Assembly (NCBI RefSeq): GCF_001542625.1
Contig: NZ_CP016279.1
Coordinates: forward strand, 2,170,001-2,234,000
Length of the DNA stretch: 64,000 nt
From: Streptomyces griseochromogenes
Lineage (GTDB): Bacteria; Actinomycetota; Actinomycetes; Streptomycetales; Streptomycetaceae
Direction of reading: 5' to 3'
In this document: piece after piece, positions 36,336 to 58,700 of the stretch
Numbering within the stretch: the stretch's first letter is position 1
How the letters are laid out: the number at the start of each line of letters is the position of its first letter
Notes under the pieces: generated by a model
What the model was told of the DNA's origin: nothing
Database searches by the model: none
The model's input: the letters and a program-made list of their open reading frames with translations, nothing else
Translations under genes and position numbers: made by a program

Positions 36336-36382
36336 TTCCCTTTTCGGTGCGAGCGAATCAACCCATGGAGAGGGGAAATGCC

Positions 36383-37879
36383 ATGACGGAGCTGCCCACA
36401 GCCGCCCCGCCGGGGCCGGCGGGCACCGGGGGCGGGCCGAGCGGTCGCCAGGCCCTCGCCGAGGAGAACCCGCGCGACCCGCTGATCCGGCTCGCGCGGC
36501 TGCTGGACGAGGGATCCCTCACGGTCGTCCACGACAGTGACGCGATCAGCACGGCGGTGGCCTCCGGCCGGGTCCACGGCGTGGACGTCATCGCGTTCTG
36601 CACGGACGCCCGCGTGATGGGCGGAGCCGTCGGGTTCGACGAGTGCCGCCGCATCGCGGACGCCATCGATCTCGCTCTGCGGGAGAGCCGCCCGGTCATC
36701 GGCCTGTGGCACTCCGGCGGAGCCAAACTCGCCGACGGCATCGAGGCGATGGACGGAATCGGCCGGATCTTCGCGGCGACCGTCCGTGCCTCGGGCCGGA
36801 TCCCCCAGATCTCCGTGGTGCTCGGCGCGGCCGCCGGCGGCGCCGCATACGGGCCCGCACTCACGGACGTGGTCGTCATGGCACCCGCCGGCCGGATCTT
36901 CGTGACCGGCCCGGACGTGGTGCGCAGCGTGACCGGCGAGCAGATCGACATGGAAGGTCTGGGCGGAACGGAGGCGCACGGCCGCAAGTCCGGAGTCACA
37001 CACATCGTGGCCGACTCCGAGGAGGACGCCTACGCGCGCACCCGGCATGTGACCTCCCTGCTCGCCGTCCCCGGAAAAGTCGACCTGGAAGCGGTGGGCC
37101 CGGACCGTGACCTGCGGGCGCTGCTGCCCTCCTCACCCCGGCGGGCCTACGACGTACGGCCGCTGGTGACCGGCATCCTCGACACCGACCCCGGGTATCC
37201 GGGCGGCGGCACGAGCGAGCGGGGCTCCTTCGAGGAGTTCCATGCCAAGTGGGCGCCGAACGTCGTGACCGGCCTCGGCCGGCTCGCCGGCCAGACCGTG
37301 GGAGTCGTCGCCAACAACCCGTTGCGCAAGGGCGGTTGCCTGGACTCGCTGAGCGCGGAGAAGGCCGCGCGCTTCGTACGGCTGTGTGACTCCATGGGGG
37401 TCCCGCTGCTCAGCCTGATCGACGTGCCCGGCTATCTGCCCGGTGTGGCCCAGGAGTGGGGCGGAGTCGTCAGGCGCGGGGCGAAACTGCTGTACGCCTT
37501 CGCCGAAGCGGTCGTACCCCGTGTCTCGGTGGTCACCCGCAAGTCCTACGGCGGTGCCTACATCGCCATGAACTCCCGTTCCCTCGGCGCCACCAAGGTG
37601 TTCGCCTGGCCCGATGCCGAAGTCGCCGTGATGGGCGCCGAGTCGGCCGTGGGCATCCTGCACCGCAAGGCCCTCGCCGCCGCGCCCGAAGCGGAGCGCG
37701 AGGAGCTGCGCGCGCGGCTCGTCGAGGAACAGAAACGACTCGCCGGCGGTGTCGACCGGGGACTCGCGCTCGGGGTGATCGACGAGGTCATCGCCCCGGC
37801 ACGGACCCGGGCCGCGGTGGCGGAGGTCTTCGCCGCCGAGCCCTGCCGACGCGGTACGCACGGGAACATCCCGCTGTGA
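36383..37879 (+). CDS. Acyl-CoA carboxylase carboxyltransferase (beta) subunit
   Basis: A 498-residue protein starting MTELPTAAPPGPAGTGGG with GGAGAGGGG upstream. It has the two crotonase-like halves of AccD/PccB proteins: GAAAGGAAYGPALTDVVVM in the N-half and VVTRKSYGGAYIAMNSRSLGATKVFAWPDAEVAVMG in the C-half. At the position where propionyl-specific PccB has Asp, this protein has Ile394 (GGAYIAM), the residue linked to acetyl-CoA acceptance in actinobacterial AccB/AccD6. Malonyl-CoA supply for the polyketide synthase is the likely role. It is first of a three-gene unit with a DUF5988-like protein and a biotin carrier. No biotin carboxylase gene is in the window, so the housekeeping one must be shared. 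Confidence 0.88.
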   Translation: MTELPTAAPPGPAGTGGGPSGRQALAEENPRDPLIRLARLLDEGSLTVVHDSDAISTAVASGRVHGVDVIAFCTDARVMGGAVGFDECRRIADAIDLALRESRPVIGLWHSGGAKLADGIEAMDGIGRIFAATVRASGRIPQISVVLGAAAGGAAYGPALTDVVVMAPAGRIFVTGPDVVRSVTGEQIDMEGLGGTEAHGRKSGVTHIVADSEEDAYARTRHVTSLLAVPGKVDLEAVGPDRDLRALLPSSPRRAYDVRPLVTGILDTDPGYPGGGTSERGSFEEFHAKWAPNVVTGLGRLAGQTVGVVANNPLRKGGCLDSLSAEKAARFVRLCDSMGVPLLSLIDVPGYLPGVAQEWGGVVRRGAKLLYAFAEAVVPRVSVVTRKSYGGAYIAMNSRSLGATKVFAWPDAEVAVMGAESAVGILHRKALAAAPEAEREELRARLVEEQKRLAGGVDRGLALGVIDEVIAPARTRAAVAEVFAAEPCRRGTHGNIPL

Positions 37880-38617: not shown

Positions 38618-40483
38618 ATGAGCACCGAGACGCTGGAGTTTCAGGCCGAAGCGCGGCAGCTGCTGCAGTTGATGGTCCATTCGATCTACTCGAACAAGGA
38701 CATCTTCCTGCGCGAACTCATCTCCAATGCCTCCGACGCCCTGGACAAACGGCGCCTCGCCGGTCTCAAGGACGAGAGTCTCAGGGCCGACGACCTCCAC
38801 ATCGCCATCGAGACGGACAAGGACGCCCGCACGCTGACCGTGCGGGACAACGGCATCGGCATGTCGCGCGACGACGTCGTGGGGCTCATCGGCACGATCG
38901 CCCGGTCCGGTACCGCGGAGACCCTGCGCAAGCTGCGGGAAAGCCGGGAGAGCCGCGAGAACGGCCAGAACGGCGAGAACAGGGAATCGGCCGAGCTCAT
39001 CGGCCAGTTCGGCGTCGGCTTCTACTCGACCTTCATGGTCGCCGACAACGTCACCCTGCTCACCCGCAAGGCCGGCGAAGAGGCGGGTACGCGCTGGGAG
39101 TCGGACGGCAGCGGCACATACACCATCGAGACCGTCGAGGACGCGCCGGAAGGCACGTCGGTCACCGTCCACCTGCGTCCCAAGGACGAGGAGGACGCGC
39201 TCTACGACTACACCGAGGACTGGAAGATCCGGGAGATCGTCAAGCGGTACTCGGACTTCATCTCCTTCCCCATCAGGATGGGGGACGACACCCTCAACTC
39301 GATGAAGGCCCTGTGGGCGCGGCCGCGTTCCGAGGTCGAGGACGAGGAGTACCGGGAGTTCTACCGCCACGTCACCCACGACTGGACCGACCCGCTGGAG
39401 ATCATCCAGATGCGGGCCGAGGGCACCTTCGAGTACGAGGCCCTGCTCTTCATTCCCTCGCGCGCCCCGCACGACCTCTTCCAGCGTGACGGCAGCCACG
39501 GTGTCCAGCTGTACGTCAAGCGCGTGTTCATCATGGAGGACAGCCGCGAGCTGCTGCCCGACCACCTCCGCTTCGTCAAGGGAGTCGTGGACGCGGCCGA
39601 CCTGTCGCTGAACATCTCCCGCGAGATCCTCCAGCAGGACCGGCACATCCAGCTGATCCGCCGCCGCCTCGCGAAGAAGGTCCTGTCGACCATCAAGGAC
39701 CTCATGAAGAACGACGCGGAGAAGTACCGCACGTTCTGGCGCGAGTTCGGTCCCGCCGTCAAGGAGGGCCTGCTCAGCGGCACCGAGGACCACAAGGCGA
39801 TCCTGGACATCGCGTCGTTCGCCTCCACCGCCTCCGACGAGCCGACCAGCCTGGCCGACTACGTGGCCCGGATGAAGGACGGCCAGGACAAGATCTACTT
39901 CATGACCGGCGAAAGCCGCGCACAGATCGAGAACTCCCCGCACATGGAGGCGTTCCGGGCCAAGGAGTACGAGGTCCTGCTGCTCACCGACCCGGTGGAC
40001 GAGATCTGGGTCGAGGCGGTGCAGGCTTACGAGGGCAAGGAGTTCCAGTCGGTCGCGCGCGGCGCGGTCGACCTGCCCTCGGACGAGGAGCTGTCCGAGG
40101 AGAAGTCCGGTGCGTACGCCGCGCTGCTGACGTGGCTGAGCGAGGCGCTCGACGAAGTGAAGGACGTCCGGTTGACGACCCGGCTCACCAACTCGCCGGC
40201 GTGCCTGGTCAGTGATGTCGACGGCATGACGCCGACCCTGGAGAAGATGTACAGGGCGATGGGCCAGCAGGTCCCGCCGGTCAAGCGCATCCTCGAGCTG
40301 AACCCCGAGCACCCGCTGGTCAGCGGGCTGAGGTCCGCGCACGAGGAGCGCGCCGACGACCCGGCGCTCACCGAGACGGCCGAGCTGCTGTACGGCACCG
40401 CGCTGCTCGCGGAAGGCGGCGACCTGGCCGACCCGGCACGCTTCGCCAAGCTGCTGGCCGACCGCCTCGCCAGGACCGTGTGA
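38618..40483 (+). CDS. htpG: HtpG, Hsp90-family molecular chaperone
   Basis: A 621-residue chaperone starting MSTETLEFQAEARQLLQLMVHSIYSNKDIF, with AAAGGA 4 nt upstream. The ATP pocket (Bergerat fold) is intact: Glu33 and Asn37 in LRELISNASDALDK, Asp77 in DNGIGM, and GQFGVGFYS. An extra charged segment (about 107-123, RESRESRENGQNGENRES) lies in the ATP-lid region compared with E. coli HtpG. The middle domain has the catalytic Arg in LNISREILQ. The C-terminal dimerisation domain is complete. It lies between the malonyl-CoA supply genes and the thioesterase of a polyketide cluster. It may be a self-resistance or folding factor, or merely a resident stress gene. Confidence 0.95.
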   Translation: MSTETLEFQAEARQLLQLMVHSIYSNKDIFLRELISNASDALDKRRLAGLKDESLRADDLHIAIETDKDARTLTVRDNGIGMSRDDVVGLIGTIARSGTAETLRKLRESRESRENGQNGENRESAELIGQFGVGFYSTFMVADNVTLLTRKAGEEAGTRWESDGSGTYTIETVEDAPEGTSVTVHLRPKDEEDALYDYTEDWKIREIVKRYSDFISFPIRMGDDTLNSMKALWARPRSEVEDEEYREFYRHVTHDWTDPLEIIQMRAEGTFEYEALLFIPSRAPHDLFQRDGSHGVQLYVKRVFIMEDSRELLPDHLRFVKGVVDAADLSLNISREILQQDRHIQLIRRRLAKKVLSTIKDLMKNDAEKYRTFWREFGPAVKEGLLSGTEDHKAILDIASFASTASDEPTSLADYVARMKDGQDKIYFMTGESRAQIENSPHMEAFRAKEYEVLLLTDPVDEIWVEAVQAYEGKEFQSVARGAVDLPSDEELSEEKSGAYAALLTWLSEALDEVKDVRLTTRLTNSPACLVSDVDGMTPTLEKMYRAMGQQVPPVKRILELNPEHPLVSGLRSAHEERADDPALTETAELLYGTALLAEGGDLADPARFAKLLADRLARTV

Positions 40484-40593: not shown

Positions 40594-41361
40594 TCAGCCG
40601 ACGGTGCGAGCGCGTTCGGCCTGGAAGTGCTGCTCCAGAACCTGGAGGACCTCTTTGCTCCGGTCGCTGATGAAGAAGTGCCCACCGGTGAACACACGCA
40701 GATCGAGTGATCCCGTCGTGTGCTGGGCCCAGGCCTTCGCCTCGTCCAGGGTCGTCTTGGGATCGCTGTCGCCGGTCAGCACGGTGATCGGGCAGTCCAC
40801 GGTGACCCCGGGCTCACAACGGTAGGTCTCCACCGCCTTGTAGTCCGCGCGGAGCGCGGGCAGCGCGGCCCGCATCATCTCCTCGTCACCGAGCAGCGCC
40901 GACGCGGTGCCGCTCAGCCGGCGCACCTCGGCCAGGATCGTCTCGTCACTGCGATGCGTGTTCTCCTCCCGGTACGTCGAAGGCGCCCGGCGCCCGGAGG
41001 CGAACAGCCGCACCGGACCGTGCCCGTCGGCCTCCAGACGGCGGGTCAGCTCGAAGCCGAGAACGGCCCCCATGCTGTGACCGAGGAAGGTGAGCGGGAG
41101 CTCCGGCTGGCGGCGGAGCACCTCGTATATGCGGTCGGCGAGTATCGCGAGGTCCTCGACGGGCTGTTCCGTACGGCGGTCCTGCCGGCCGGGGTACTGG
41201 ATGGCGACGACATCGACATCAGGGCTCAGCGCCGCCGCCACCGGGAGGTAGAAAGGAGCCGACCCGCCCGCGTGCGGGAGGCATACCAGCCGAGCAGCCG
41301 GGTTTTTGGCCGGGTGAAAACGGCGACACCACAGTTCATCTCCGGGCGAAGGCTGAGACAT
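40594..41361 (-). CDS. Type II thioesterase
   Basis: A 255-residue alpha/beta-hydrolase starting MSQPSPGDELWCRRFHPAKNP; the ATG complementary to 41359-41361 has GGAG 5 nt upstream. CLPHAGGSAPFY forms the oxyanion region, LTFLGHSMGAVLGFEL holds the nucleophile Ser, and the catalytic His is in FTGGHFFISD. Stand-alone thioesterases of this family remove aberrant acyl groups from polyketide synthase carrier proteins. It is transcribed divergently from the small gene at 41618. A 9-11-9 StrR-type inverted repeat (41468-41496) sits in the shared promoter region. Confidence 0.92.
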   Translation of the reverse strand: MSQPSPGDELWCRRFHPAKNPAARLVCLPHAGGSAPFYLPVAAALSPDVDVVAIQYPGRQDRRTEQPVEDLAILADRIYEVLRRQPELPLTFLGHSMGAVLGFELTRRLEADGHGPVRLFASGRRAPSTYREENTHRSDETILAEVRRLSGTASALLGDEEMMRAALPALRADYKAVETYRCEPGVTVDCPITVLTGDSDPKTTLDEAKAWAQHTTGSLDLRVFTGGHFFISDRSKEVLQVLEQHFQAERARTVG

Positions 41362-41467: not shown

Positions 41468-41496
41468 GCTCAACTGCCAGAATGGCGCAGTTGAAC
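41468..41496. promoter_or_regulatory. StrR/NovG-type operator, site 1
   Basis: GCTCAACTG (41468-41476), 11 bp, CAGTTGAAC (41488-41496). The right half fits the published NovG form CRGTYGAAC and the spacing is exactly 11. The left half has one change from GTTCRACTG. It lies 106 bp upstream of the thioesterase gene and 121 bp upstream of the 41618 gene, so it could control both. A StrR-family regulator is encoded 2.7 kb away. Confidence 0.75.
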
Positions 41497-41617
41497 GGAG
41501 ACCGGACTGCGGCCTTGATGATAGTTATCTCATCGAGGGCATGTGGCCGCCTGTTGCGTCGTCCCATGAGCCTGGTTACTGTTCCGAATTACGTGGCGAC
41601 ATTGAGAGGTGACGTAC

Positions 41618-42007
41618 GTGGGGCACAAATTCTCCCTGGTTCTCAGCCGGCAGATCACCGACGACGAGTCGGCAGTCCTGCAGGAGGCTGGATTCTCCGA
41701 CGCGACTTTCGTGACTGACTCACTCCCGACCAATGCGGACGTCGCCGTCACGAAGATTGATTTCGATGACGCGGCCGCGCCCTCCCTGGCCGAGGCGATC
41801 GAATCGGCCCTCGAGACGGTGAAGAAGGTTCCGGACCTCACCGTGCCCGGCCTCACCGTCCCGGCCGTGCCGCAGGCTCCGGCCGACGACTCCCGTGTCG
41901 TGGTCGGCGAGGTGGTCGAGGGATCGGCCGTCGAGAAGGCGTCCGAGAGGAAGGCGCCCGCCAAGAAGCGCGGCACCAAGAAGGCCGCCGCAGCGGACGA
42001 GGCATAG
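41618..42007 (+). CDS. Small hypothetical protein with Ala/Lys-rich tail
   Basis: A 129-residue protein read from GTG 41618 (VGHKFSLVLSRQITDDESAVLQEAGF), with AGAGG 8 nt upstream; GTG 41609 is an alternative. The first 65 residues look folded (DVAVTKIDFDDAAAPSLAEAIESALETVKKVPDL). The middle is Pro/Val-rich and the last 25 residues are basic (ERKAPAKKRGTKKAAAADEA), which could bind nucleic acid or be disordered. I do not recognise the family. It has its own terminator (42051-42123) and a StrR-type operator upstream, so it is probably regulated with the cluster. Confidence 0.72.
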   Translation: MGHKFSLVLSRQITDDESAVLQEAGFSDATFVTDSLPTNADVAVTKIDFDDAAAPSLAEAIESALETVKKVPDLTVPGLTVPAVPQAPADDSRVVVGEVVEGSAVEKASERKAPAKKRGTKKAAAADEA

Positions 42008-42050
42008 CCCGCCGCCATCAGGTGACGGACCGCCAAGAGCGGTCGCCACG

Positions 42051-42123
42051 AACACAGCGAAGCTCCGGTTGCCGGGGCGACTGTCCGAAGTCGCCCGGAA
42101 CAACCGGAGCTTCGCTGCGTTGT
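42051..42123 (+). terminator. Long imperfect terminator hairpin
   Basis: AGCGAAGCTCCGGTTG (42056-42071) pairs perfectly with 42103-42118. The stem extends imperfectly inward to GGCGAC/GTCGCC around the loop TGTCCGAA. It follows the 41618 gene by 43 bp. Confidence 0.78.
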
Positions 42124-42161
42124 CATACATCTGTCATGATCTGCCCGGTTCGGCAGTGGCC

Positions 42162-42190
42162 GTTCAACCGATGTGGCACGACGGTTGAAC
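42162..42190. promoter_or_regulatory. StrR/NovG-type operator, site 2
   Basis: GTTCAACCG (42162-42170), 11 bp, CGGTTGAAC (42182-42190): a perfect 9-11-9 inverted repeat. The right half fits CRGTYGAAC exactly. Two further copies of GGTTGAAC in the same orientation follow at 42224-42231 and 42241-42248 without inverted partners. It lies 289 bp upstream of the O-methyltransferase start, in a gene-free stretch (42124-42478) that also holds its leader. Confidence 0.8.
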
Positions 42191-42478
42191 GCGCATCGGC
42201 GCAGCCCGCGCTTTCCATCTCGGGGTTGAACAGCGGGCCCGGTTGAACGCTGCGTTCCGATCACCCCGTTTCCCATAGCATATGCGATGCGAGTTGCGCC
42301 CCTTGGTCATCGTCGGCCCCCTGCCCGCTTATCGCGAACGACACCCCCCACCACCCCCCGCTCAGTCGTTCCAGGGCCGTGTCGGCCCCTCGGCAACTTC
42401 CCCAGTTCAAAGAATCCGCACGAATTAGCAAACCTGTCAGCACTTTTTCTGTCATGCAGTCGGGAGAGGAACGAGGCA

Positions 42479-43495
42479 ATGGACGTTTCATTGGTGGACC
42501 TGGCCTTGGGGTCCTGGATCTCGGCGGCAATCGGCGTCGCGGCCCGGCTCGGTGTCGCGGATGTCCTTGAAGAGGGGCCGGCCACGAGCGCCGAACTGGC
42601 CAAGGCCGTCGGCGTGCAGCCCGACTCGATCACGCCCGTCATGAAGGCGCTGGTCATGGTGGGAGTCTTCGCGCAGGACGAGGAGGGCCGCTACACCAAC
42701 TCTCCCCTCTCCGAGCAGCTGCGAACCCGCCATCCCCAGTCCATGCGGCACATGTGCATGCTGCTCACCGGCCTGTACGCACAGGGCTGCGGCGCGCTGC
42801 TGGAAGCGGTGCAGACGGGGCAGGGGGCGCTCAACGCCCGGTTCGGTGTCGGTCTTTACGAGTATCTGGAACAGGACCCCGAGACCGCTCGCATCTTCGA
42901 CCGCGCCATGCAGGAGGCGGCCCGTCCGGTCGCGGCGATGGTGGCCGAGCACTACCCGTTCGAGAACGTGCGCACGGTGATCGACGTCGGTGGCGGCAAC
43001 GGCGAACTGCTCAAGGGAATTCTCGCGGCTCACCCGCATCTCAAGGGCATCTGCGTGGACCGCGAGGACACCTGCCGGCGGGCGGAGGCCGCGCTGCGCG
43101 AGTCCGGCGACGAGGATCTCGTCGAGCGGCTGACGTTCCGGCCCGCGGACATCTTCGAGGAGTGTCCCGGCGGCGGCGACCTCTACATCCTGAAGAACGT
43201 GCTGCACGACTGGAGTTCGGAGAGCGCCGTACGCATCCTGAGCAGCATCAGCGCGGCCATGCGGGCCGGCGACGGGGAGCGCACACCGACCCTGGTGGTG
43301 ATGGACCCGGTGCGTGAACACGACCCGGGCGCCCCGCTGCGTCCCCTGATCAAGATGGTGATCGGCGAGAAGAACACGCGCGAGCGCAGCGAGGCCGACA
43401 TCCGCCGGGAGGCGGCGGAGGCGGGCCTCCAGGTCGTGTCCATCACCCCGCTGCCGCCGGACCTGAGCGCGGTCGCCTGCACTCTGGCCCCCTAG
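42479..43495 (+). CDS. SAM-dependent O-methyltransferase
   Basis: A 338-residue protein starting MDVSLVDLALGSWISAAIGVAARLGVADVL, with AGAGGA upstream. Residues 10-95 form the winged-helix dimerisation domain of acetylserotonin/caffeate-type O-methyltransferases. The SAM-binding motif is TVIDVGGGNGELLKGIL (about 175-190), with ICVDRE as motif II. LKNVLHDWSSESAVRIL carries the catalytic His in N-V-x-H-D-W. Members methylate phenolic or enolic hydroxyls in polyketides. It is the first tailoring gene of the cluster and follows StrR-type operator site 2. Confidence 0.9.
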   Translation: MDVSLVDLALGSWISAAIGVAARLGVADVLEEGPATSAELAKAVGVQPDSITPVMKALVMVGVFAQDEEGRYTNSPLSEQLRTRHPQSMRHMCMLLTGLYAQGCGALLEAVQTGQGALNARFGVGLYEYLEQDPETARIFDRAMQEAARPVAAMVAEHYPFENVRTVIDVGGGNGELLKGILAAHPHLKGICVDREDTCRRAEAALRESGDEDLVERLTFRPADIFEECPGGGDLYILKNVLHDWSSESAVRILSSISAAMRAGDGERTPTLVVMDPVREHDPGAPLRPLIKMVIGEKNTRERSEADIRREAAEAGLQVVSITPLPPDLSAVACTLAP

Positions 43496-44243: not shown

Positions 44244-45245
44244 ATGGGCCTTGTTGGCCGCAGTACTATTTCGACTGGCGCGGAGGAATGCCAGGATGTC
44301 GGGCCGGGGATCGTCTCGGTTCCGATTATCCAGGTGTTACCGGGTGACTCTCCGCGCTTGAAGGGTGAGGACAAGGTCCATGTATTACGGCTGGCGGCGA
44401 TAGAGACCGCGCTGCCGCCCATACTGGTCGATCGAAGAACTATGCGGGTGATCGATGGGATCCACCGCTTGATGGCAGCCTCTCTCAAGGGGCACAAAGT
44501 GATTGACGTCGAGTTCTTCGACGGCAGTCGCGAGGAAGCGTTTCTGAAAGCGGTCGAGGCGAACGTCGAGCACGGTCTCCCGCTGTCGCAGGCCGATCGC
44601 ACCGCGGCGGCGCTGCGCATCCTCAAGTCGCACCCCACCATGTCGGATCGTGCCATAGCCAAGTCGACCGGTCTCGGAGCCCGGGCGGTGGCGGAACTGA
44701 GGCGCTCGTCCGACTCCGTGCCGCATTCGAATTTCCGGGTGGGCCGGGACGGCAAGGTCCGTCCGTTGAACGGCGCGAAGGGGCGGCTGCGGGTCGCGGA
44801 GCTGATCAGGGAGAACCCGCAGGCTTCACTGCGTCAGGTGGCCCGGACGGCGGGGGTTTCGCCCGCGACGGCGCTCGATGTGCGGCGGCGGCTGGAGCGC
44901 GGTGAAGAACCTGTCCCCAGCCAAGGGGGAACCGCAAGTGCCGAGACGGAAACCCCGAGGGATCCCATGCCGGTTCCGAACGCGTCGATGATGGGGCCTC
45001 CGTCGACCGCCACACTCGAAAAGCTCATGCGTGATCCCTCGCTGCGGCAGAGCGAGTTGGGCCGGCGTCTGCTGCGGATGTTCAAGGAGAACGTGCTCGG
45101 CGCCAAGGAGATGACGGATATCTGTGCCTCGGTGCCCTCGCACTGTCTTGAAATGATCATACAGCTCTCCCGCGCCAACTCTCAGATCTGGGAAGATTTC
45201 GCCCAGGAGTTGAACAGACGAGCACGGATCGTCAACCCCGAATAG
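44244..45245 (+). CDS. StrR/NovG-family pathway-specific regulator (ParB-like) with two TTA codons
   Basis: A 333-residue protein read from ATG 44244, with GGGGG 8 nt upstream. Residues about 22-115 are the ParB-like domain (VLPGDSPRLKGEDKVHVLRLAAIETALPPILVDRRTMRVIDGIHRLMAA). Two helix-turn-helix segments follow, at about 130-158 (TMSDRAIAKSTGLGARAVAELRR) and about 190-217. This is the layout of StrR and NovG, activators of antibiotic clusters that bind GTTCRACTG-N11-CRGTYGAAC. Codons 32 (44337-44339) and 48 (44385-44387) are TTA, requiring the bldA tRNA. It ends at a hairpin (45291-45339). Confidence 0.9.
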   Translation: MGLVGRSTISTGAEECQDVGPGIVSVPIIQVLPGDSPRLKGEDKVHVLRLAAIETALPPILVDRRTMRVIDGIHRLMAASLKGHKVIDVEFFDGSREEAFLKAVEANVEHGLPLSQADRTAAALRILKSHPTMSDRAIAKSTGLGARAVAELRRSSDSVPHSNFRVGRDGKVRPLNGAKGRLRVAELIRENPQASLRQVARTAGVSPATALDVRRRLERGEEPVPSQGGTASAETETPRDPMPVPNASMMGPPSTATLEKLMRDPSLRQSELGRRLLRMFKENVLGAKEMTDICASVPSHCLEMIIQLSRANSQIWEDFAQELNRRARIVNPE

Positions 45246-46712: not shown

Positions 46713-49700
46713 ATGGCCAACGAAGATAAGCTCCGCGATTACCTCAAGCTGGTGACGGCTAATCTTCGCCAGACCCGCCGCCGTCTGGCTGAGGTCGAGG
46801 AACGGAGCCAGGAGCCCCTCGCGATCGTGGGGATGAGCTGCCGGTTCCCCGGCGGGGCTCAGAGCCCGGAGAAGCTGTGGGAGCTGTTGGCCACGGGGAC
46901 GGACGCCATCGGAGCGTTCCCGCAGGACCGCGGCTGGGACATCGAGACCCTCTATGACCCCGACCCCGATCACCCGGGCACTTCGTACGCGCGCCACGGC
47001 GGATTCCTCTACGACGCCGCCGAGTTCGACGCCGGCTTCTTCGGAATCAGCCCGCGCGAGGCACTGATGATGGACCCGCAGCAGCGGCTGCTGCTGGAGG
47101 TGTCCTGGGAGGCGCTGGAGAAGGCGGGCATCGACGCCGCCTCACTGCGCGGCACCCAGACCGGTGTCTTCGCGGGCGGCTACACCTCCGGCTACGGCAC
47201 GAACCCCTCGGCGGAGGCGGGCGGTTCCGAAGGCCATCTGCTGACCGGCATCGCGACCAGCGTCCTGTCGGGGCGCCTGGCGTTCACCTTCGGCCTGGAG
47301 GGCCCGGCGGTGACGGTGGACACCGCCTGTTCGTCGTCGCTGGTGGCCCTCCACCTGGCCTGCCAGGCGCTGCGCGCCGGGGAGTGCTCGCTGGCCCTGG
47401 TCGGCGGAGTCACCGTGATCGCCACCCCGGCCGTGTTCGTCGGGTTCTCCCGGCAGCGCGGTATGTCGGTGGACGGGCGGTGCAAGTCCTTCAGCGCCGA
47501 GGCCGAAGGGTCCGGCTGGGCCGAGGGCGCCGGCGTCCTGGTCGTGGAGCGGTTGTCCGACGCCCGCCGCAACGGCCACCGGGTGCTGGCCGTGGTCCGC
47601 GGATCCGCGATGAACCAGGACGGCGCGTCCAACGGCCTGACCGCCCCCAACGGCCCCTCGCAGCAGCGGGTCATCCGCGCGGCCCTCGCCAACGCCCAAC
47701 TGTCGCCCGCGGACGTCGACGTGGTGGAGGCGCACGGCTCGGCGACCAAGCTCGGCGACCCGATCGAGGCCGAGGCGCTCATCGCCACCTACGGCCAGGA
47801 CCGTCCGGAAGACCGCCCGCTGTGGCTGGGCTCGGTGAAGTCCAACATCGGACACGCCCAGGCCGCCGCAGGTGTCGCCGGTGTCATCAAGATGGTGCTG
47901 TCGCTGCAGAACGAGCGGCTGCCCCAGACCCTCCACGCGGAAGAGCCCACGCCGCATGTCGACTGGTCGGCCGGCGAGGTGCGCCTGCTGACCGAGTCGA
48001 AGCCGTGGGAGACGGACAGCCGAGTGCGCCGCGCCGGTGTGTCGGCGTTCGGCATGAGCGGCACCAACGTGCACATCATCCTGGAGGAAGCCCCCACCGA
48101 CAGCGGTGTGCCGGCGCAGGACCCCGCCGAGGACGGCGAGGTGGCCGAGGCCGCAGCCCTGGACGAGCCGGCCGACGAGGTCGAGCGGACCGCCGTGCCC
48201 GCGGTGGTGGAGGCCGACGGGACCGGCGCGTGGCTGGTGTCGGCGCGTACGGCCGAGGGGCTGGTGGCGCAGGCGGGCCGGTTGCGGGAGTGGGTCGCTG
48301 CCCGGCCCGAACTGAACATCCCCGATGTGAGTTGGTCGCTGGCGGTGTCCCGCTCGGTGTTCGAGCACCGCGGCGTGGTGGTCGGCTCCGACCGCGAGGA
48401 ACTGCTGACCGGCTTGGAGAAGCTGGCTGCCGGTACGTCCGCGGGTTCGGTGGCATCGGGTGTGGCTCGGCCGGGTTCCCGGACGGTGTTCGTCTTCGCG
48501 GGTCAGGGGGCTCAGTGGGTGGGGATGGGTCGTGAACTGGCTGTTTCCTCGCCGGTGTTCGGGGCTCGGTTGGCGGAGTGTGAGCGGGCGTTGTCGCCGT
48601 ATGTGGAGTGGTCGCTGAGTGATGTGCTCGCGGGTGCTCCGGGGGTTCCTGGGCTGGACCGTGCGGATGTGGTGCAGCCGGTGTTGTGGGCGGTGATGGT
48701 TTCGCTGGCCGCGGTGTGGGAGGCGGCGGGTGTGTCGCCCGATGCGGTGGTGGGTCATTCGCAGGGTGAGATTGCTGCGGCGACGGTGGCGGGGATGTTG
48801 AGTGTGGAGGATGGCGCCCGGGTGGTGGCGGTGCGGTCGCGGGCGTTGTCGGGTCTGTCGGTGCAGGGCTCGATGGTGTCGGTGGTGATGCCGTCGCAGG
48901 CGGTGCGGGAGTTGGTGGGGCAGTGGGGTGAGCGTCTGTCGGTGGCGGCGGTGAACGGTCCGGCGGCGGTGGTGGTTTCTGGTGAGCCGGGGGCGTTGTC
49001 GGAGTTCGAGCGGGAGTTGTCGGCTCGGCATGTGTTGCGGTGGCGGATTCCGGAGACGGATTTTGTGGCGCATTCGCCGGCGGTGGAGCCGTTGGCGGTG
49101 GTGTTGGAGGGGGAGTTGGCGGGGATTGCGCCGCGGGCTGGTCGGGTGCCGATGGTGTCCACGGTGACTGGTGAGTGGGTGTCGGGTCCTGAGGTGGATG
49201 CCGGGTATTGGTATGCGAATCTGCGGCAGATGGTCCGTTTCGAGGAAGCGGTCCGTGTCCTGATCACTGGTGGGTACGGCGCGTTTGTGGAGGTCTCCCC
49301 GCACCCGGTGCTGACCGCCGCCGTGGCGGAAACCGCGGAGGACGCGGGCAACACCGATGTGGTGGTCGTAGGAACTCTGGAGCGTGACAACGGTGGTGCG
49401 GCGCGGCTGTTGTCCGTGTTCGGGCAGGCGTATGTCGGCGGGCTGAGCGTGGACTGGAAGGCTGTTCTGCCCGCCGCGGAACAGGTCGAGCTGCCCACCT
49501 ACGCCTTCCAGCACCAGCGGTACTGGCTGCGGTCGGCGGCCGCGACCGTGGCTCTGGCCGGCGCGGACGGTGCGAGCACGGCGGCCGAGGCGCAGTTCTG
49601 GGCCGCTGTCGAGGGCGGTGACCTGGCCTCGATCGCGGACACGCTGGCGATCGAGGACCAGCGGTACCTGAGCGAGCTGCTGCCGGCGCTGGCGTCGTGG

Positions 49701-52700
49701 CGGCGCCAGGAGCGGGACCGGTCCGCGACAACGAGCTGGCGTTACCGGGTGACCTGGGCGCCGGTCGCCGAGCCCGACGCCCGGGCGCTGTCAGGGACTT
49801 GGCTGGTCGTGGCCGAGCGGTCCGGCGACGACCTGACGCAGTGGTGTGTGGAGGCGCTCGCCGCCCGGGGCGCCGAGGTGGTGGTCGCCGAGGTGCCGGC
49901 CGGGACGGTGGACCGTACCGAGGTGGCGAAGGTCCTCGGTCAGGTGTTGCGGGACGTCGAGCCCGGCGCGGTGGCCGGTGTGGTGTCGCTGCTCGCGCTG
50001 GACGAGACGCCCGTGCCCGCGCACCCGGTGGTGGCCCAGGGCGTGGCCGCGACCGTGGGCCTCGTGCAGGCGCTCGGCGACGCCGGAGTGGGCGCACCGC
50101 TGTGGGTGTCCACGCGCGGGGCGATCGCCACCGGCTCCGACGAGGCACTGGCCAGTGCCGTGCAGGCGCAGGTGTGGGGCCTGGGCCGGGTCGCAGCACT
50201 GGAACACCCCGACCGGTGGGGCGGGTTGATCGACCTGCCCGCCGTACTCGACGACCGCGCCGGAGTCCGGCTGACGGCCGTGCTCGCCCGGGGCGACGAG
50301 GACCAGGTGGCGATCCGCGCCTCCGGGATCCTGGCCAGGCGGCTGACCCGCGCCCCGCAGACCCGCGGCTCCGCGCGGCGCTGGGAGCCGCGCGGAAGCG
50401 CGCTGATCACCGACGGCACCTCCGCGATCGGCGGACACGTCGCCCGCTGGATGGCCGGCCGGGGTGCTCGCCGGCTCGTGCTGACCAGCCGGACCGGCCC
50501 CTGCGCCCCCGGTGTCGCCGCACTGGTGGCCGAGCTGGCCGCCCTCGGCACCCGGGTCGACGTGGTGGCCTGCGACGTGAGCGAGCGAGCTGACCTGGCC
50601 GGGACGATCGCCTGGACCGGAACGGACGGTCCGGCCCTGTCCGCGGTGGTGCACAACGCGGAGGCGATCGACGACGGCCCCCTCGACGGCCTCGATATCG
50701 CCGAACTCGCCGCGGTACTGGCGGCCAAGGCGGCCTCGGCGGCCTGGCTGGACGAACTCACCGCAGAACTGGACGCGTTCATCCTGTTCTCCTCGGTCGC
50801 CGCCATCTGGGGCGGCGGCCAGCAGCCGGCCTTCTCCGCGGCGAACGCCTTCCTGGACGCGCTGGCGGAGAGCCGCCTGGCCCGCGGCGAGACCGCGACC
50901 TCGGTGGCCTGGGGCCCCTGGAGCGGCGGCGCGATGAGCACCGGGGACGACGGAGCCCAGCTGGAGCGGCGCGGACTGCGGCTGCTCGCTCCCGACCTGG
51001 CCGTACAGACGCTGGCCCAGATCCTGGACGGCGGCGAGGGACCGGTGACGGTCGCGGACGTCGACTGGGCCCGGTTCGCCCCGCCGTTCACGCTGCGCCG
51101 GCCCAGCCCCCTGATCGAGGGCCTGCCCGAGGTCCGGCAGGCCCTGGACGACGCCGGATCGGACGCGGCCCAGGGCGGCGCGGACGTCGACCCGGACGCG
51201 GGCTCCACGCTGAAGCAGCAGCTGGCGGGGCTGCCGACCGCCGATCAGGACCGGACCCTGGTCAACCTGATCAGGGCCGAGGCCGCCGCCGTACTCGACT
51301 ATTCCTCCCCGGAGGCCATCGGCAGCAGCCGGGCCTTCAGCGAACTGGGCTTCGACTCCCTGACCGCCGTCGAACTGCGCAACCGGCTCGGCGCGCGCAC
51401 CGGGCTCAAGCTGCCCGCGACGCTGCTCTTCGACTATCCGAGCCCCGCCGTACTGGCCGGATACCTGCGCGACGAACTGCTCGGCGTCCAGGCCACGAGC
51501 GGGACCGTGCCGATGACCACGGCGGCCCCGACGGACGACGATCCGGTGGCGATCGTGGGCATGAGCTGCCGCTTCCCCGGCGGGGTCAGGACCCCGGAAG
51601 AGCTGTGGGAGCTGCTGGACTCGGGCACGGACGCGATCGGGGCCTTCCCGCAGGACCGGGGCTGGGACCTGGACAACCTGTACGACCCGGATCCCGATCA
51701 GACCGGGACGTCGTACGTGCGCCAGGGCGGGTTCGTCTACGACGCGACCGAGTTCGACGCCGGGTTCTTCGGGATCAGCCCGCGCGAGGCGGTGGCGATG
51801 GACCCGCAGCAGCGGCTGCTGCTGGAGGTGTCCTGGGAGGCGCTGGAACGGGCGGGCATCGTCCAGTCCGCGCTGCGCGGCAGCCAGACCGGGGTGTTCG
51901 CCGGCGCGAGCTTCGCCGGATACGGCGTCACCGGAGCCACCGAGAGCCTCGAAGCACACCTGCTGACGGGCACCACGACCAGCGTGCTCTCCGGCCGGGT
52001 GGCCTACACCTTCGGCCTGGAGGGCCCGGCGGTGACGGTCGACACGGCCTGCTCCTCGGCGCTGGTCGCGGTGTACCTGGCCGCGCAGGCGCTGCGGTCG
52101 GGCGAGTGCTCGCTGGCACTGGCCGGCGGCGCCTTCGTGGCGGCCACTCCCGATCTGTTCGTCTGGACCAGCAGGCAGCGGGGGCTCGCCCCCGACGGCC
52201 GGTCGAAGTCGTTCGGCGCCGCCGCCGACGGCATGGGCATCGCCGAAGGCGCGGGCATGGTGGTGCTGGAGCGCCTGTCGGACGCCCGGCGCAACGGACA
52301 CCCGGTGCTCGCCGTGATACGCGGCTCCGCGGTGAACCAGGACGGCGCGTCCAACGGACTGACCGCCCCGAACGGCCCCTCGCAGCAGCGGGTCATCCGG
52401 GCGGCCCTGGCCAGCGGACGACTGTCCACCGCCGACGTCGACGTGGTGGAAGCCCACGGCTCCGGCACGGTGCTCGGCGACCCGATCGAGGCACAGGCGG
52501 TGATCGCCACCTACGGCCAGAACCGGCCGGAGGGACAGCCGTTGTGGCTGGGTTCGGTGAAGTCCAACATCGGACACGCCCAGGCCGCGGCCGGCATCGG
52601 CGGACTCATCAAGATGGTGCTGGCGCTGCGGAACAAGCGGCTGCCCGCCACCTTGCACTCGCAGGAGCCCTCGCCGCACGTGGACTGGTCGGCCGGTGAG

Positions 52701-55700
52701 GTACGACTGCTGACCGAGTCGCGGCCGTGGGAGACGGACGGCCGGCCGCGCCGCGCCGGTGTCTCCTCGTTCGGCGTCAGCGGCACCAACGCCCACATCA
52801 TCCTCGAAGAGGCCCCCGAGCCGGACGACGAGGAGACCCCCGCGGCCGTCGAGGGAGCCGGTGCCCCGGACGCCCCCGCGGTCATCGACGCCTCTGAGGC
52901 CTCCGCCTGGACCGTGTCCGGGCGGACCGCCGAAGGCATGCGGCTGCAGGCTGCCCGGCTCGCCGAGTACGTGACCGCGCGACCGGAACTGGACCCCGCG
53001 GACGTGGCCCGCTCCCTGGCACGGACCCGTTCCGTGTTCGAGTACCGGGCCGTGGTGACCGGCAGCGACCGCGAGGACCTCACGGCGGGCCTGGCCGCGG
53101 TGGTGGCCGCGGAACCCCGGCCCGGGGTCGTCATCGGGACGACCGCGGCGGCCGAGGAGGGCCAGGCGGTCTTCGTCTTCCCCGGCCAGGGCGCCCAATG
53201 GGCCGGAATGGGCCGGGAGATGGCGGTCTCCTCGCCGGTGTTCGCGGCCCGGCTGGCCGAGTGCGAGCGGGCCCTGGCCCCGTACGTCGACTGGTCGCTC
53301 ACCGACGTGCTGGCCGGCGCGGACGGCGCGCCCGAACTGGAGCGCGCCGACGTCGTCCAGCCGGCCCTGTGGGCGGTCATGGTCTCGCTGGCCGCGGTGT
53401 GGGAGGCGGCGGGCGTGACACCCGGCGCCGTGGTGGGCCACTCCCAGGGCGAGATCGCGGCGGCCACCGTGGCCGGGATCCTGTCGCTGCAGGACGCCGC
53501 CAAGGTCGTCGCGGTGCGCAGCCGGGCGCTGTCCGGGCTCGGCACCGGCGGCGGCATGCTCTCCGTCGTGATGCCCGTCGCGGCGGTGCGCGAACTGCTG
53601 GCCCCGTGGGGAGAGCGGCTCTCGGTGGCGGCGATCAACGGACCCGCGGCCACCGTGGTCTCCGGCGAGACGGACGCCCTGGCCGAGTTCGGGGCCGAAC
53701 TCTCCGCCCGGCACGTCATGCGCTGGCCGATCCCCGTCACCGACTTCGTGGCGCACTCCGCCGGTATCGAGGACCTGGCCGGCGAACTCACCGCGAGCCT
53801 GGCCGGAATCCAGCCGGGAGCGGGACGCGTCCCGCTGTTCTCCACCGTCGAATGCCGCTGGATGAACGGCCCGGAGCTCGACCCCGAGTACTGGTTCGCC
53901 AACGTCCGCCGCACCGTCCGCTTCGACGAGGCGATCCGCGAACTGGCCACGGCCGGGAACCGGACCTTCATCGAGGTCTCCCCGCAGCCGGTGCTCACCA
54001 CCGGCATCGCCGAGACGATCGAGGACCTGGGGACGGCCGCCCTCCCGGTGATCACCGGAACCCTGGACCGCGAGGACAGCGGCCCCCGCCGGCTGCTGAC
54101 CGCGCTCGCCCAGGTGCACGTGGGCGGCACCACCGTCGACTGGCAGAAGGTACTGCCCGACGCCGCGCACACGGATCTGCCCACCTACGCCTTCCAGCAC
54201 CAGCGGTACTGGATCGCGGCCGCCGACCCGGCCACCCCGGCCGTCGCCGGCGGGGACGGCGCGGGAACCGAGGCCGAGGCCCGGTTCTGGGCCGCCGTCG
54301 AAGGCGGAGACCTGCGACAGCTGGCCGACACCCTCGCGGTGGACGGACAGCGGTCCTTCAACGAGGTGCTCCCGTCGCTGGCGTCCTGGCGCCGCCGCGA
54401 ACGGGAACGGGACGTCACCGGGAACTGGCGCTACCGCGTCACCTGGGCCCCGGTCACCGACCCGGCACCGGCCACTTTGGCCGGGACCTGGCTGGTCGCG
54501 ATCCCGGCCCACCGGACCGGTGCCACCGCGGACCTCGCCCAGGCCTGCGTACGTGCCCTCACCAAGCGGGGCACCCGGATCGAGGTCGTCGAGGTCGAGG
54601 CGGGCACGGCACAGCGCGAACAGCTGGCCGCCCACCTCACCCGGGCCCTGCGCAACGGCGCCGACGAGGACACCCCCGCCCACGCGGCCGGGGTGGTCTC
54701 CCTGCTGGCGCTGGACGAGACGCCGGCCCCGGCCTGGCCCGTGGTGCCCGAGGGACTGACCGGCACACTGACCCTGCTGCAGGCGATGACCGACGCCGGG
54801 ATCGTCGCACCCCTGTGGATGCTCACCCGCGGGGCGATAGCCACCGGACCCGGCGAGGTGCTCACCAGCCCCGTACAGGGACAGACCTGGGGACTCGGCC
54901 GCGTCGTGGCCCTGGAACAGCCGGACCGCTGGGGCGGCCTCATCGACCTGCCCGCCGTGTTCGACGACCGGGCCGCCGGCCGCCTGTGCGCCGTACTCGC
55001 CGGCTGCGACGAGGACCAGGTGGCGATCAGGCCCGCCGGAATCCTCGGCCGCAGGCTGACCCGGGCCCCGCAGCCCAGGGCCGGACGGGACTTCACGCCG
55101 CGCGGCACCGTCCTGATCACCGGCGGTACGGGTGCCATCGGCGGACACGTCGCCCGCTGGCTCGCCGGCCGCGATGCCGAACGGCTCGTCCTGGCCAGCC
55201 GGTCCGGACCCGGTGCGGCGGGTGCGGCCGCGCTGGCGGCCGAGCTGGCGACGGCCGGGACCCACGTCGAGATCAGCACCTGCGACAGCGGCCTGCGCGC
55301 CGACCTGTCCGGACTCATCGACCGCATCGCTGCGAGCGGACCGCCGCTGACCGCCGTCATGCACACCGCGGGCGTGCTCGACGACGGCGTGCTCGACCGG
55401 CTCGACGCCGAACGACTGACCACCGCGCTCTCGGCCAAGGCCGCCGGCGCCGCCTACCTCGACGAACTGACCGCGGACCTCGACCTCGACGCGTTCGTCC
55501 TGTTCTCCTCCGGCGCCGCCACCTTCGGCGGCGCGGGCCAGGCCAACTACGCCGCCGCGAACGCCTTCCTGGACGGACTCGCCGAGAACCGCCGCTCGCG
55601 CGGCCTGACCGCGATGTCGGTGGCCTGGGGCCCCTGGGCCGGCGAAGGCGTGTCCCAGGCCAGCGAGGCGGCCCGGCAGCGGCTGCGCCGCAACCGCTGG

Positions 55701-58700
55701 GAGGTCCTGATGGACCCGAAGCTGGCGGTCAAGGCACTGGGCGAGGCACTGGCAGGCCCGGACACCGTGCTGACCGTGATGGACCTCGACTGGCCCAAGC
55801 TCGCGGCCGCCCCCGGCGCCGCCGAGATCCTCGGCGTGCCGTTCCTGCGCGACCTGCCGGACGCCCAGCAGCTGAAGGCGGCGGCACAGGCCGACGGCAA
55901 CGCGCCCCAGGCCGAAGGCGAACTGGCCCAGCGGCTGACCGGCCTGTCCCGCACCGAACAGGACCGGATGCTCGTCGACACGATCCGGGGCGAAGCCGCC
56001 GCGGTACTCGGCTACTCCGGCCCCGACGACGTGGAACCCAGCCGGGCCTTCAGCGAACTGGGCTTCGACTCCCTCACCGCCGTCGAGCTGCGCAACCGGA
56101 TCGCCACGGTCACCGGACTCCGACTGCCCGCCACCCTGCTGTTCGACTACCCCTCCCCGACGGTGCTGGCCGATCACCTGCGCGTGACACTGCTCGGCGC
56201 CCTGGCCCAGAACACGGCCGCCCCGGAGGCCCCGGCCACCGCGCCCGTCGACGGCGAACCGATCGCCGTCGTGGCGATGAGCTGCCGCTTCCCCGGCGGC
56301 GTGAACAGCCCCGAAGAACTCTGGGAGCTGCTGGCCGCACGCGGCGAAGGCATCTCGGGCTTCCCGCAGGACCGCGGATGGGACACCGCCGCCCTGTTCG
56401 ACCCCGACCCCGCCAACGCCGGGACCACCTACGCACGCGAAGGCGGATTCCTCCACCAGGCCGCCGAGTTCGACGCGGGATTCTTCGGCATCAGCCCGCG
56501 CGAAGCGGTGGCGATGGACCCGCAGCAGCGGCTGCTGCTCGAACTCTCCTGGGAGGCGCTGGAGTCCACCGGAGTGGACCCGGCCTCGCTGCGCGGCTCG
56601 CGCACCGGCGTGTTCATCGGCGGATACTCGTCCGGCTACGCGGCGGCCAGCATGCAGCTGGGCGCGCGGGACGGCGCCGCGCAGCTGGAAGGCCACCTGG
56701 TCACCGGCAACGCGACCAGCATCATCTCCGGTCGGGTGTCGTACGTGCTCGGCCTGGAGGGCCCGGCGGTGACCGTCGACACGGCCTGCTCGTCGTCCCT
56801 GGTGGCACTGCACATGGCCGCCCAGGCGGTGCGCTCGGGCGAATGCTCGCTGGCGCTGGTCGGCGGCGTCTCGGTCATGGCGACACCGTGGGAGATGGTG
56901 GGCTTCGCCCGCCAGCGCGGGCTGGCGGCGGACGGACGGTCCAAGGCCTTCTCCGCGACGGCCGACGGCATGGGCATGGGCGAAGGCGCCGGAATGATCG
57001 TGCTGGAGCGGCTCTCCGAAGCCCAGCGCAAGGGCCACCGGGTGCTGGCGGTGGTGCGTGGCTCCGCGGTGAACCAGGACGGCGCGTCCAACGGCCTGAC
57101 CGCCCCCAACGGCCCCTCCCAGCAGCGGGTGATCCGCGCGGCCCTCGCCAACGCCCGGCTGTCGGCCGCCGACGTGGACGTGGTGGAGGCGCACGGTACG
57201 GGCACCCCGCTGGGCGACCCGATCGAGGCACAGGCCCTGCTCGCCACCTACGGCCAGGAACGCGCCGACGAACGGCCGCTGTGGCTCGGCTCGGTCAAGT
57301 CCAACCTCGGACACACCCAGGCAGCCGCGGGCATGGCCGGCGTCATCAAGATGGTGCTGGCCATGCGGCACGGAGAGCTGCCCGCGACCCTGCACGCGGA
57401 CGAACCGTCGCCGCACGTGGACTGGTCCGCGGGCGAGGTACGGCTCCTGACGGAACCGGTGCCGTGGCCGGCCGGGGAGCGCGCCCGCCGGGCCGGTGTC
57501 TCGGCGTTCGGCATCAGCGGCACCAACGCGCACGTCATCGTCGAGGAAGCACCGGCCACCGAGGCCGGTGAGCTTGACGCCGATGAGTTTGAGAACGGCG
57601 CCGGTACGGCGTCCGTGGTGGCGGGCGCCGGCGCGTGGGTGGTGTCCGGCCGGTCGGCCGAAGGCCTGACCGCGCAGGCAGGACGTCTGCGGGACTGGGT
57701 CACCGCACGGCCTGACCTGGACGCGGCGGACCTGGGCTGGTCGCTCGCCTCGACGCGGTCGGTGTTCGAGCACCGGGCCGTGGTGGTGGGCGCCGACCGC
57801 GAGCAGTTGATGACCGGGCTGGAGAACCTGGCTGCCGGGGTGTCCGCGGGTTCGGTGGTGGCCGGGGTCGCGCGTTCGGGTGCGCGGGTGGGTTTGGTGT
57901 TCGCGGGTCAGGGCTCGCAGTGGGTGGGGATGGGGCGCGGCCTGTATGAGGGCAGTCCTGTCTTCGCCGAGGCCTTCGATCAGGCGTGCGGCCTGGTCGA
58001 GTTGGAGTTGGGGGTGTCGGTTCGGGATGTCGTCCTGGGTGCGGACGGTGTCGACGAAGGCTTGGTGGATCAGACGCTGTATGCGCAGGCTGGTCTGTTC
58101 GCGTTCGAGGTGGCGTTGGCGGCTGTGCTGAAGGCGGCCGGTGTCGTGGCGGACGCGGTCGTGGGTCACTCGGTGGGCGAGGTCGCGGCAGCCTACGTGG
58201 CAGGCGTGTTGTCGCTTGCGGATGCCAGCCGTCTGGTGGCGGCGCGTGCTCGTTTGATGCAGGCGTTGCCTGCGGGTGGTGCGATGGCGGCGATCGGTGC
58301 CTCGGAGGCCGAGGTGGAGCCCGGGCTGACGGAGGGTGTGTCGGTCGCGGCGGTCAACGGGCCGGAGTCTGTGGTGATCTCCGGTGAGACGGCAGCGGTT
58401 GAACAGCTGGTGGAGCACTGGCGGGAGAAGGGCCGTCGGGTTCGGCGGTTGCGCGTGAGCCATGCCTTCCATTCGGCGGCGATGGACCTGGTGCTGGACG
58501 AGCTGGGTGAGGTTGCGGCGGGGCTGGAGTACCACCGGCCGCAGTTGGTGTGGGCGGGTGCTCTCACCGGTGAGCTGGTGACCGAGTGCGAGGGTGGGTA
58601 CTGGCCGGCGCAGACGCGTCGGGCGGTGCGGTTCGCGGACGCGCTGGGTGCGTTGGCGGCCGAGGGTGTGTCGGTGTTCATCGAGGTCGGTCCGGATGGT

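What the first reader, a model, noticed from the sequence alone, without database searches (positions are those of the whole stretch)
41468..42190. Two StrR/NovG-type operators (9-N11-9) in the cluster
GCTCAACTG-N11-CAGTTGAAC (41468-41496) and GTTCAACCG-N11-CGGTTGAAC (42162-42190) both match the known StrR/NovG binding form GTTCRACTG-N11-CRGTYGAAC in spacing and almost all bases. The first lies in the divergent promoter region of the type II thioesterase and an unknown small gene; the second lies upstream of the O-methyltransferase. A StrR-family regulator is encoded at 44244-45245. StrR-type control is best known from aminoglycoside and aminocoumarin clusters, so its use in a modular polyketide cluster is notable.
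Basis: partly seen in the sequence, partly recalled or inferred. Interest (0 to 1): 0.82.

Follow-up and report, generated by a model that had tools for sequence, protein, structure and literature searches.

The report
StrR operators controlling a polyketide cluster
Two matching DNA switches in a large antibiotic-type gene cluster are very probably binding sites for the activator protein encoded beside them, and the same kind of switch also sits in front of the first assembly-line gene and of a small fatty-acid gene set far away on the chromosome.

Summary
GCTCAACTG-N11-CAGTTGAAC (41468-41496) and GTTCAACCG-N11-CGGTTGAAC (42162-42190) are where stated. In the 10.76 Mb genome, GTTCAACNG-N11-CNGTTGAAC with at most one mismatch occurs three times: these two and one exact copy 862 kb away. 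One StrR-type gene was detected, at 44244-45245. Relatives support function. Site 1 keeps its arms, not its spacer, at the same promoter in six clusters. A further operator, missed by the fixed-spacer pattern, precedes the loading PKS gene here (outside the window) and in five of six related genomes. The distant copy lies 119 bp before an intact KASIII-ACP-KS cassette; 5 of 6 full-length close KASIII relatives have an exact site upstream, a partial seventh has none, and 0 of 23 more distant loci have one. StrR-type control of this modular PKS cluster is well supported, but no binding was measured. StrR-like regulators in polyketide clusters are already on record. Less expected are a probable out-of-cluster target and spacers that drift between 11 and 12 at one promoter and 12 to 14 at another, whereas the published sites I saw span 29 bp.

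The parts
41468..41496 (.). Operator 1, GCTCAACTG-N11-CAGTTGAAC, in the divergent thioesterase/small-gene promoter
   Evidence: a site at the same place in six clusters, this one included
42162..42190 (.). Operator 2, GTTCAACCG-N11-CGGTTGAAC, a perfect 9+9 palindrome upstream of the O-methyltransferase
   Evidence: present in S. cellostaticus; a 12-base-spacer counterpart precedes StrR in L141
42225..42248 (+). Two direct GTTGAAC half-sites (42225-42231, 42242-42248) just downstream of operator 2; possible accessory half-sites
   Evidence: both present in S. cellostaticus. Function inferred only
40594..41361 (-). Type II thioesterase gene
   Evidence: PF00975, 9.1e-56
41618..42007 (+). Small gene (129 aa), unknown function, kept next to this regulator clade
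   Evidence: no Pfam or NCBIfam match at E 0.001; 531 homologues; present in all six loci that have the thioesterase beside StrR
42479..43495 (+). O-methyltransferase gene, present here and in S. cellostaticus, not found in the stretches read around StrR in the four g57 (Kitasatospora-like) loci
   Evidence: PF00891 and PF08100; tblastn
44244..45245 (+). StrR-family regulator gene, the only one detected in the genome
   Evidence: HTH_24; single genome match at E 0.001; ParB/Noc-like predicted fold
46713..61115 (+). First PKS gene downstream of the regulator, three modules (the cluster continues far beyond the window)
   Evidence: KS, AT, KR, ACP and docking domains; cluster survey

Best explanation
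The two sites are operators of the cluster's own StrR-family activator. The regulator would bind both 9-bp arms and recruit RNA polymerase to (1) the divergent thioesterase/small-gene promoter, (2) the promoter of the O-methyltransferase, probably ancestrally that of the regulator itself, and (3) the loading-PKS gene 102 kb downstream of operator 2, which has a related site with a 14-base spacer. It probably also acts in trans on a KASIII-ACP-KS cassette 862 kb away, which resembles the FabH4/FabF3 set that supplies a hexanoyl-ACP for the calcium-dependent antibiotic. Shown: the sites, their conservation, a single detected StrR gene, the cassette. Inferred: binding, activation, trans control, acyl supply.
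For: Published StrR form GTTCGActG(N)11CagTcGAAc (PMC8306873, passage). Sites present and above chance. One StrR gene found in the genome, all 79 first-look candidates scored. Operator 1: 15 of 18 arm columns invariant in six clusters, spacer 1 of 11. Operator 2 present in S. cellostaticus. A site with both arms before the loading PKS gene in six genomes, this one included. Of 24 operator-bearing genomes 23 have a StrR-type gene, against 27 of 67 without the operator, p = 7.6e-7. Distant KASIII cassette: exact operator upstream in 5 of 6 full-length close relatives (4 within about 330 bp, 1 at about 1.4 kb), and in 0 of the next 23 loci fetched.
Against: No binding or expression data. Genomes are related, so the p-value overstates. 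For operator 1, 19 of 226 equally spaced placements in the same intergenic region, its own included, reach as many invariant columns. Operator 2 lies in an intergenic region that is 87% identical between the two species, so its conservation says less; its spacer too is 8 of 11 identical by count. L139, L140 and L142 show no second operator near StrR. The loading-PKS site has spacers of 12, 13 or 14 and its left arm overlaps a hairpin-like repeat after fkbH; the seventh genome scanned (G527) shows no such site, though its loading gene was not located. A partial seventh close KASIII relative (G373, internal stop) has no exact operator upstream. S. cellostaticus has the cluster and all three in-cluster sites but no close KASIII cassette (best 55%), so the cassette is not essential to the pathway.
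Confidence: 0.78

Rival explanations
1. Only the in-cluster sites are functional; the exact site before the distant KASIII cassette is a relic carried in with genes that were once controlled by another cluster's StrR regulator.
For: The cassette's close relatives lie, by eye, mostly in peptide-synthetase clusters; two of six have a StrR-type gene on the same contig (G011, G341) and five of six somewhere in the genome. S. cellostaticus has the PKS cluster but not the cassette. Around it only an IucA/IucC gene was recognised as biosynthetic.
Against: Site and all three genes look intact, catalytic residues in place by inspection, and the only StrR-type gene detected in the genome is the PKS one.
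Confidence: 0.4
2. The palindromes are sites of some other widespread regulator, and the nearby StrR gene is incidental.
For: Binding is untested; half-sites GTTGAAC occur elsewhere in the window; 27 of 50 genomes with a StrR-type gene show no near-exact site.
Against: 23 of 24 operator-bearing genomes have a StrR-type gene; the form fits the published StrR consensus; sites lie near the regulator gene in seven clusters.
Confidence: 0.07
3. Chance palindromes.
For: The 2-mismatch place 3000837 and some R/Y-pattern places look like chance.
Against: 0.03 expected against 3 observed at up to 1 mismatch; 0 of 100 shuffles reach the window count; arms kept in relatives.
Confidence: 0.03

Closest known systems
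StrR sites of the streptomycin clusters, GTTCGActG(N)11CagTcGAAc (PMC8306873, passage)
   Same: 9-bp arms, 11-base spacer, 29 bp in all, in a cluster that encodes the regulator
   Different: A at the fifth arm position instead of G; modular PKS cluster; a probable target outside the cluster; orthologous sites with 12 to 14 base spacers
Bbr/Dbv4 and AoStrR1 sites of glycopeptide clusters, GTCCAR(N)17TTGGAC and GTCCAN18TTGGAC (PMC7852140 and PMC6022936, passages)
   Same: StrR-family regulator, dyad of the same 29 bp total length, several promoters per cluster
   Different: Different arm sequence; no fatty-acid cassette target in the passages seen
FabH4/FabF3 genes of the calcium-dependent antibiotic cluster, reported to make a hexanoyl-ACP (PMC9136287, passage)
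   Same: A KASIII and a KS of the FabF type, here with an ACP gene between them
   Different: Not inside a recognised peptide cluster in this genome; product unknown; preceded by a StrR-type operator. Direct sequence comparison with FabH4/FabF3 was not made
Cluster regulators with targets outside their cluster, such as LmbU (PMC10763038, passages)
   Same: A cluster-situated regulator acting on genes outside its cluster
   Different: LmbU is another family and its targets were shown by gel shift; here the target is predicted

Membership tests
StrR-type operator | Inverted 9-bp arms matching GTTCRACNG/CNGTYGAAC | tested here: met
   1 and 0 mismatches for operators 1 and 2
StrR-type operator | 11-base spacer, 29 bp in all | tested here: met
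   Met by both window sites and the distant site. Not met by the loading-PKS site here (14) nor by several orthologues (12, 13)
StrR-type operator | Lies in promoter regions of the regulator's cluster | tested here: met
   Intergenic, upstream of genes; transcription starts not mapped
StrR-type operator | Bound by a StrR-family protein | not testable with these tools
   Needs a binding assay
StrR-family regulator | ParB-like N-terminal domain | tested here: met
   Best Foldseek matches are Noc and ParB, E 5.4e-06, but model pTM is 0.39 and the TM-scores of the 23 matches with E up to 0.001 are 0.19-0.34 by query; no sequence match in PDB
StrR-family regulator | Central helix-turn-helix | tested here: met
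   HTH_24 at 186-219, 28.6 bits over a cut-off of 21.9
StrR-family regulator | Helical C-terminal domain | tested here: met
   Helices between 254 and 330 in the model
StrR-family regulator | Direct sequence similarity to StrR, NovG or KasT | not tested
   Those sequences were not fetched; the 120 listed homologues carry no such name in the text shown
StrR-family regulator | Activates the cluster in vivo | not testable with these tools
   Needs a mutant
CDA-type FabH4/FabF3 acyl cassette | KASIII and FabF-type KS side by side | tested here: met
   PF08541/PF08545 and PF00109/PF02801; ACP between them read by eye with a VDSLSLAEL motif, no family search run on it
CDA-type FabH4/FabF3 acyl cassette | Situated in a lipopeptide synthetase cluster | tested here: not met
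   No peptide synthetase recognised in the 45 kb listed around it; only 10 ORFs of the middle 18 kb were searched against Pfam, the rest judged by eye

The most novel reading that the evidence does not exclude
A polyketide cluster's StrR activator has an out-of-cluster regulon member: it switches on an orphan KASIII-ACP-KS cassette 862 kb away, captured from lipopeptide-type clusters together with its operator, to feed a short acyl chain into the pathway. At the same time the family's 29-bp operator rule is not strict: orthologous promoters work with spacers of 11 or 12 at one place and 12, 13 or 14 at another, which would fit a flexible, ParB-like (possibly nucleotide-gated) clamp rather than a rigid dimer.
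Probability: 0.3. Interest if true: 0.68.

Novelty: new variant of a known kind. Interest (0 to 1): 0.5.

Why it matters
If the regulon is right, one overexpressed gene should switch on a very large uncharacterised PKS-NRPS cluster, a practical route to its product. The distant cassette would be a clear test case of a cluster regulator acquiring a supply gene elsewhere on the chromosome through its operator. The spacer drift at orthologous promoters makes the geometry of StrR-family binding directly testable with natural variants.

Tried and rejected
Considered and rejected. (1) A fixed 11-base spacer as a complete description: it missed the loading-PKS site in this genome, found only after the relatives' 12-base sites were seen. 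(2) Half-sites 43541 and 43800 upstream of StrR as operators: not kept in S. cellostaticus. The half-site at 46387 is kept there, but in an intergenic region that is 89% identical throughout, so it says little. (3) The 2-mismatch place 3000837, and the 1-mismatch places 3799464, 7667835 and 8085203 of the R/Y pattern: treated as chance; their contexts were not studied beyond an ORF list for the first. (4) Supply of the PKS starter by the distant cassette: the protein taken as the loading one begins with a KS whose active-site motif reads VDTSASSS and has its own AT and ACP, so a trans-fed starter is not required. The AT motifs read are of three kinds, HAFH, YASH and VAHS; no extender was assigned to the last. 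(5) The product was not identified; paper searches on S. cellostaticus and on StrR with methoxymalonyl gave nothing that names it in the listings. (6) A nucleotide switch was considered from the ParB/Noc-like fold and the invariant D71, G72, H74, R75 and N107; one search of the held library for StrR, CTP and ParB-like together gave no paper. Recalled, not from a call: the GRINS comparison, the roles of the ParB GxxR and ENxxR motifs, KASIII and KS catalytic residues.

Dropped or limited rows. The partial G373 KASIII match (66%, one internal stop) is not among the six full-length relatives; it has no exact operator upstream. One search matched 167 of 384 genomes, but only 30 loci (own, 6 close, 23 more distant) were fetched and scanned. 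In one search only 5 candidates per genome were scored, so absences there are soft. One search scored 7992 candidates and listed 120 of 2091.

Full report
What was claimed and whether it is there. Both are present as written. Each differs at one place from GTTCRACTG-N11-CRGTYGAAC; no other site in the window has 3 or fewer mismatches, and 0 of 100 shuffles give as many matches. The next best has 4 mismatches. The flanking genes are a type II thioesterase (leftwards), a 129-aa gene without a Pfam match, an O-methyltransferase, and a regulator with a helix-turn-helix. Sites 1 and 2 lie 106, 121 and 288 bp from the thioesterase, small-gene and methyltransferase starts.

Whole genome. The window lies at 2170001-2234000 of a single 10.76 Mb contig. 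The pattern GTTCAACNG-N11-CNGTTGAAC with up to 2 mismatches occurs at four places: the two sites, an exact copy at 3077585-3077613, and a 2-mismatch copy at 3000837; the backwards control gives one. With R/Y in the arms and up to 1 mismatch there are 7 places, control 0. Base composition predicts 0.0005 exact and 0.03 sites with up to 1 mismatch per genome for the first pattern. One StrR-type gene was found in the genome at E 0.001.

Conservation in relatives. Streptomyces cellostaticus has both operators at the same places. A sample of 394 genomes of the family yielded five more close relatives of the regulator besides the own one, 78 to 85% identical by tblastn. In four of these five, and in S. 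cellostaticus and the window, the order thioesterase(-), small gene(+), regulator(+) is kept: six clusters, with the FH025 record counted once. Operator 1 is present in all six, with an 11-base spacer in three (window, S. cellostaticus, L139) and a 12-base spacer in three (L140, L141, L142). In the alignment 15 of 18 arm columns and 1 of 11 spacer columns are invariant; 19 of 226 placements in the same intergenic region, the operator's own included, do as well, and by eye the invariant blocks lie near the two gene starts. The left arm reads GCTCAAC in all six, so the C that looked like a mismatch is itself kept. In the fifth relative (L143) the thioesterase and small gene were not found, and an exact N11 site lies upstream of the regulator gene.

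Operator 2. In S. cellostaticus it is upstream of the same methyltransferase, in an intergenic region that is 87% identical, so its conservation is weak evidence by itself. In L141 an operator with a 12-base spacer lies between the small gene and the regulator, with no methyltransferase there. I infer that operator 2 originally served the regulator's own promoter and that the methyltransferase came to lie in between. L139, L140 and L142 show no such second site.

A further element outside the window. Scanning the relatives with a spacer of 11 or 12 revealed one recurring site in four genomes, between an fkbH-type gene and the loading PKS gene. In our genome the same place (2314194-2314225) holds GCTCAACCG-N14-CGGTTGAAC, and S. 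cellostaticus has a 13-base spacer there. So six genomes have both arms at this place, with spacers 12 (four), 13 (one) and 14 (one). In four of the six this gene is on another contig than the regulator; in this genome and in G556 it is on the same one. The seventh genome scanned, G527, shows no such site, and its loading gene was not located. The left arm overlaps a hairpin-like repeat after fkbH, so whether the dyad or only the right half-site works is open.

Spacer lengths. Published forms are GTTCGActG(N)11CagTcGAAc for StrR (passage), GTCCAR(N)17TTGGAC for Bbr/Dbv4 (passage) and GTCCAN18TTGGAC for AoStrR1 (passage); all total 29 bp. In 266 genus genomes exact arms with spacers 12 to 16 occur at 10 places: seven N12, one N13, one N14, one N15; the reversed control hits 1 genome. 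By my reading, 9 of these 10 genomes have a StrR-type gene (not G154), and 6 of 10 sites (5 of 7 N12, and the N13) lie within 60 kb of one on the same contig; for G104 the gene's place was not listed. For comparison, the 91 genus genomes hold 20 exact N11 sites in 13 genomes. N12 therefore looks like a real minority class; N13 and N14 rest mainly on the loading-PKS promoter.

Association with StrR genes. Of 91 genus genomes seen in both scans, 24 have an operator with up to 1 mismatch and 23 of these have a StrR-type gene; of the 67 without, 27 do (Fisher p = 7.6e-7, not corrected for kinship). Over 150 relatives, 30 genomes have the operator and 1 has the reversed control.

The distant site. 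It lies 119 bp upstream of a KASIII gene, followed by an ACP and a FabF-type KS. Catalytic residues are in place by inspection. Of 384 genus genomes searched, 167 had a KASIII match; 30 loci were fetched. Six are full-length close relatives (66-74% identical). In their neighbourhoods the same ACP is listed in four and the FabF-type KS in five; the surroundings look, by eye, mostly like peptide-synthetase clusters and were not family-searched. Five of the six have an exact operator upstream, four within about 330 bp of the match and one at about 1.4 kb; 0 of the other 23 loci (55-61%) have one within the 1.5 kb flanks at up to 3 mismatches. The sixth (G116) is in a genome without a StrR match. 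A seventh, partial copy with an internal stop (G373, 66%) has only 2-mismatch sites nearby. Outside the genus, an exact site also lies about 1 kb upstream of a KASIII gene of the same type in G577 (L154). The cassette resembles FabH4 and FabF3 of the calcium-dependent antibiotic cluster, reported to make a hexanoyl-ACP (PMC9136287, passage). The simplest reading is that this orphan set answers to the PKS cluster's regulator. Against it, S. cellostaticus has the PKS cluster without a close cassette (best 55%), so it may instead be a relic.

The regulator. A model from 36 homologues (mean pLDDT 74.7, pTM 0.39) matches Noc and ParB structures best, with low whole-chain TM-scores (E 5.4e-06). Residues D71, G72, H74, R75 and N107 are invariant in the 36. 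From recalled ParB work these correspond to the nucleotide-binding region, so a nucleotide switch is possible but untested.

Novelty. StrR-like regulators in polyketide clusters are on record: 52 StrR-like regulators in MIBiG clusters of several kinds including polyketides (PMC10886168, section 5), SaqI (PMC8910723, passage), and sfb2 in the butyrolactone gene cluster of the filipin producer (PMC7480387, passages). What I did not find in the held papers is a StrR-type target outside a cluster or spacer variation; the searches were made, seen as listings with passages from a few papers, and subscription papers are mostly not held (one tried by id).

Verdict. Binding is not shown.

Noticed in passing
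L005:11494-11517 (G000:C1:3080493-3080516): GTTCAACTG-N6-CAGTTGAAC, a perfect dyad with a 6-base spacer, about 255 bp after the KS gene of the distant cassette. It could be a terminator or an unusual operator; no other locus held shows N6.
   Followed up: partly
window 38618-40483: An htpG (Hsp90) gene and an acyl-CoA carboxylase gene (36311-37879) flank the cluster here and in S. cellostaticus, but were not found in the stretches read around StrR in the g57 loci. Self-protection or extender supply is possible; chromosomal border genes are as likely.
   Followed up: no
L044:6000-20000 and L130 (window coordinates about 150000-179000): PKS genes with strong GC and AT skew on the coding strand (GC skew up to 0.47, AT skew to -0.56), reminiscent of the recalled GRINS elements.
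   Followed up: no
L044:7062-7347 (G000:C1:2321062-2321347): Two overlapping PKS reading frames meet here, the first ending just after a dehydratase region; a frame change or an assembly error.
   Followed up: no
window 41618-42007: The small gene belongs to an unnamed family (531 homologues, many from metagenomes, some with a lysine-rich tail), rare in the genus (this genome and one other of 384) and kept beside this regulator clade.
   Followed up: partly
L126, L128, L124 (S. cellostaticus contigs 15 and 1): S. cellostaticus has three further exact R/Y-pattern sites on other contigs, suggesting additional StrR-controlled genes.
   Followed up: no
window 46387-46395: A single conserved half-site GTTCAACTG lies between the DUF1707 gene and the first downstream PKS gene.
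   Followed up: partly
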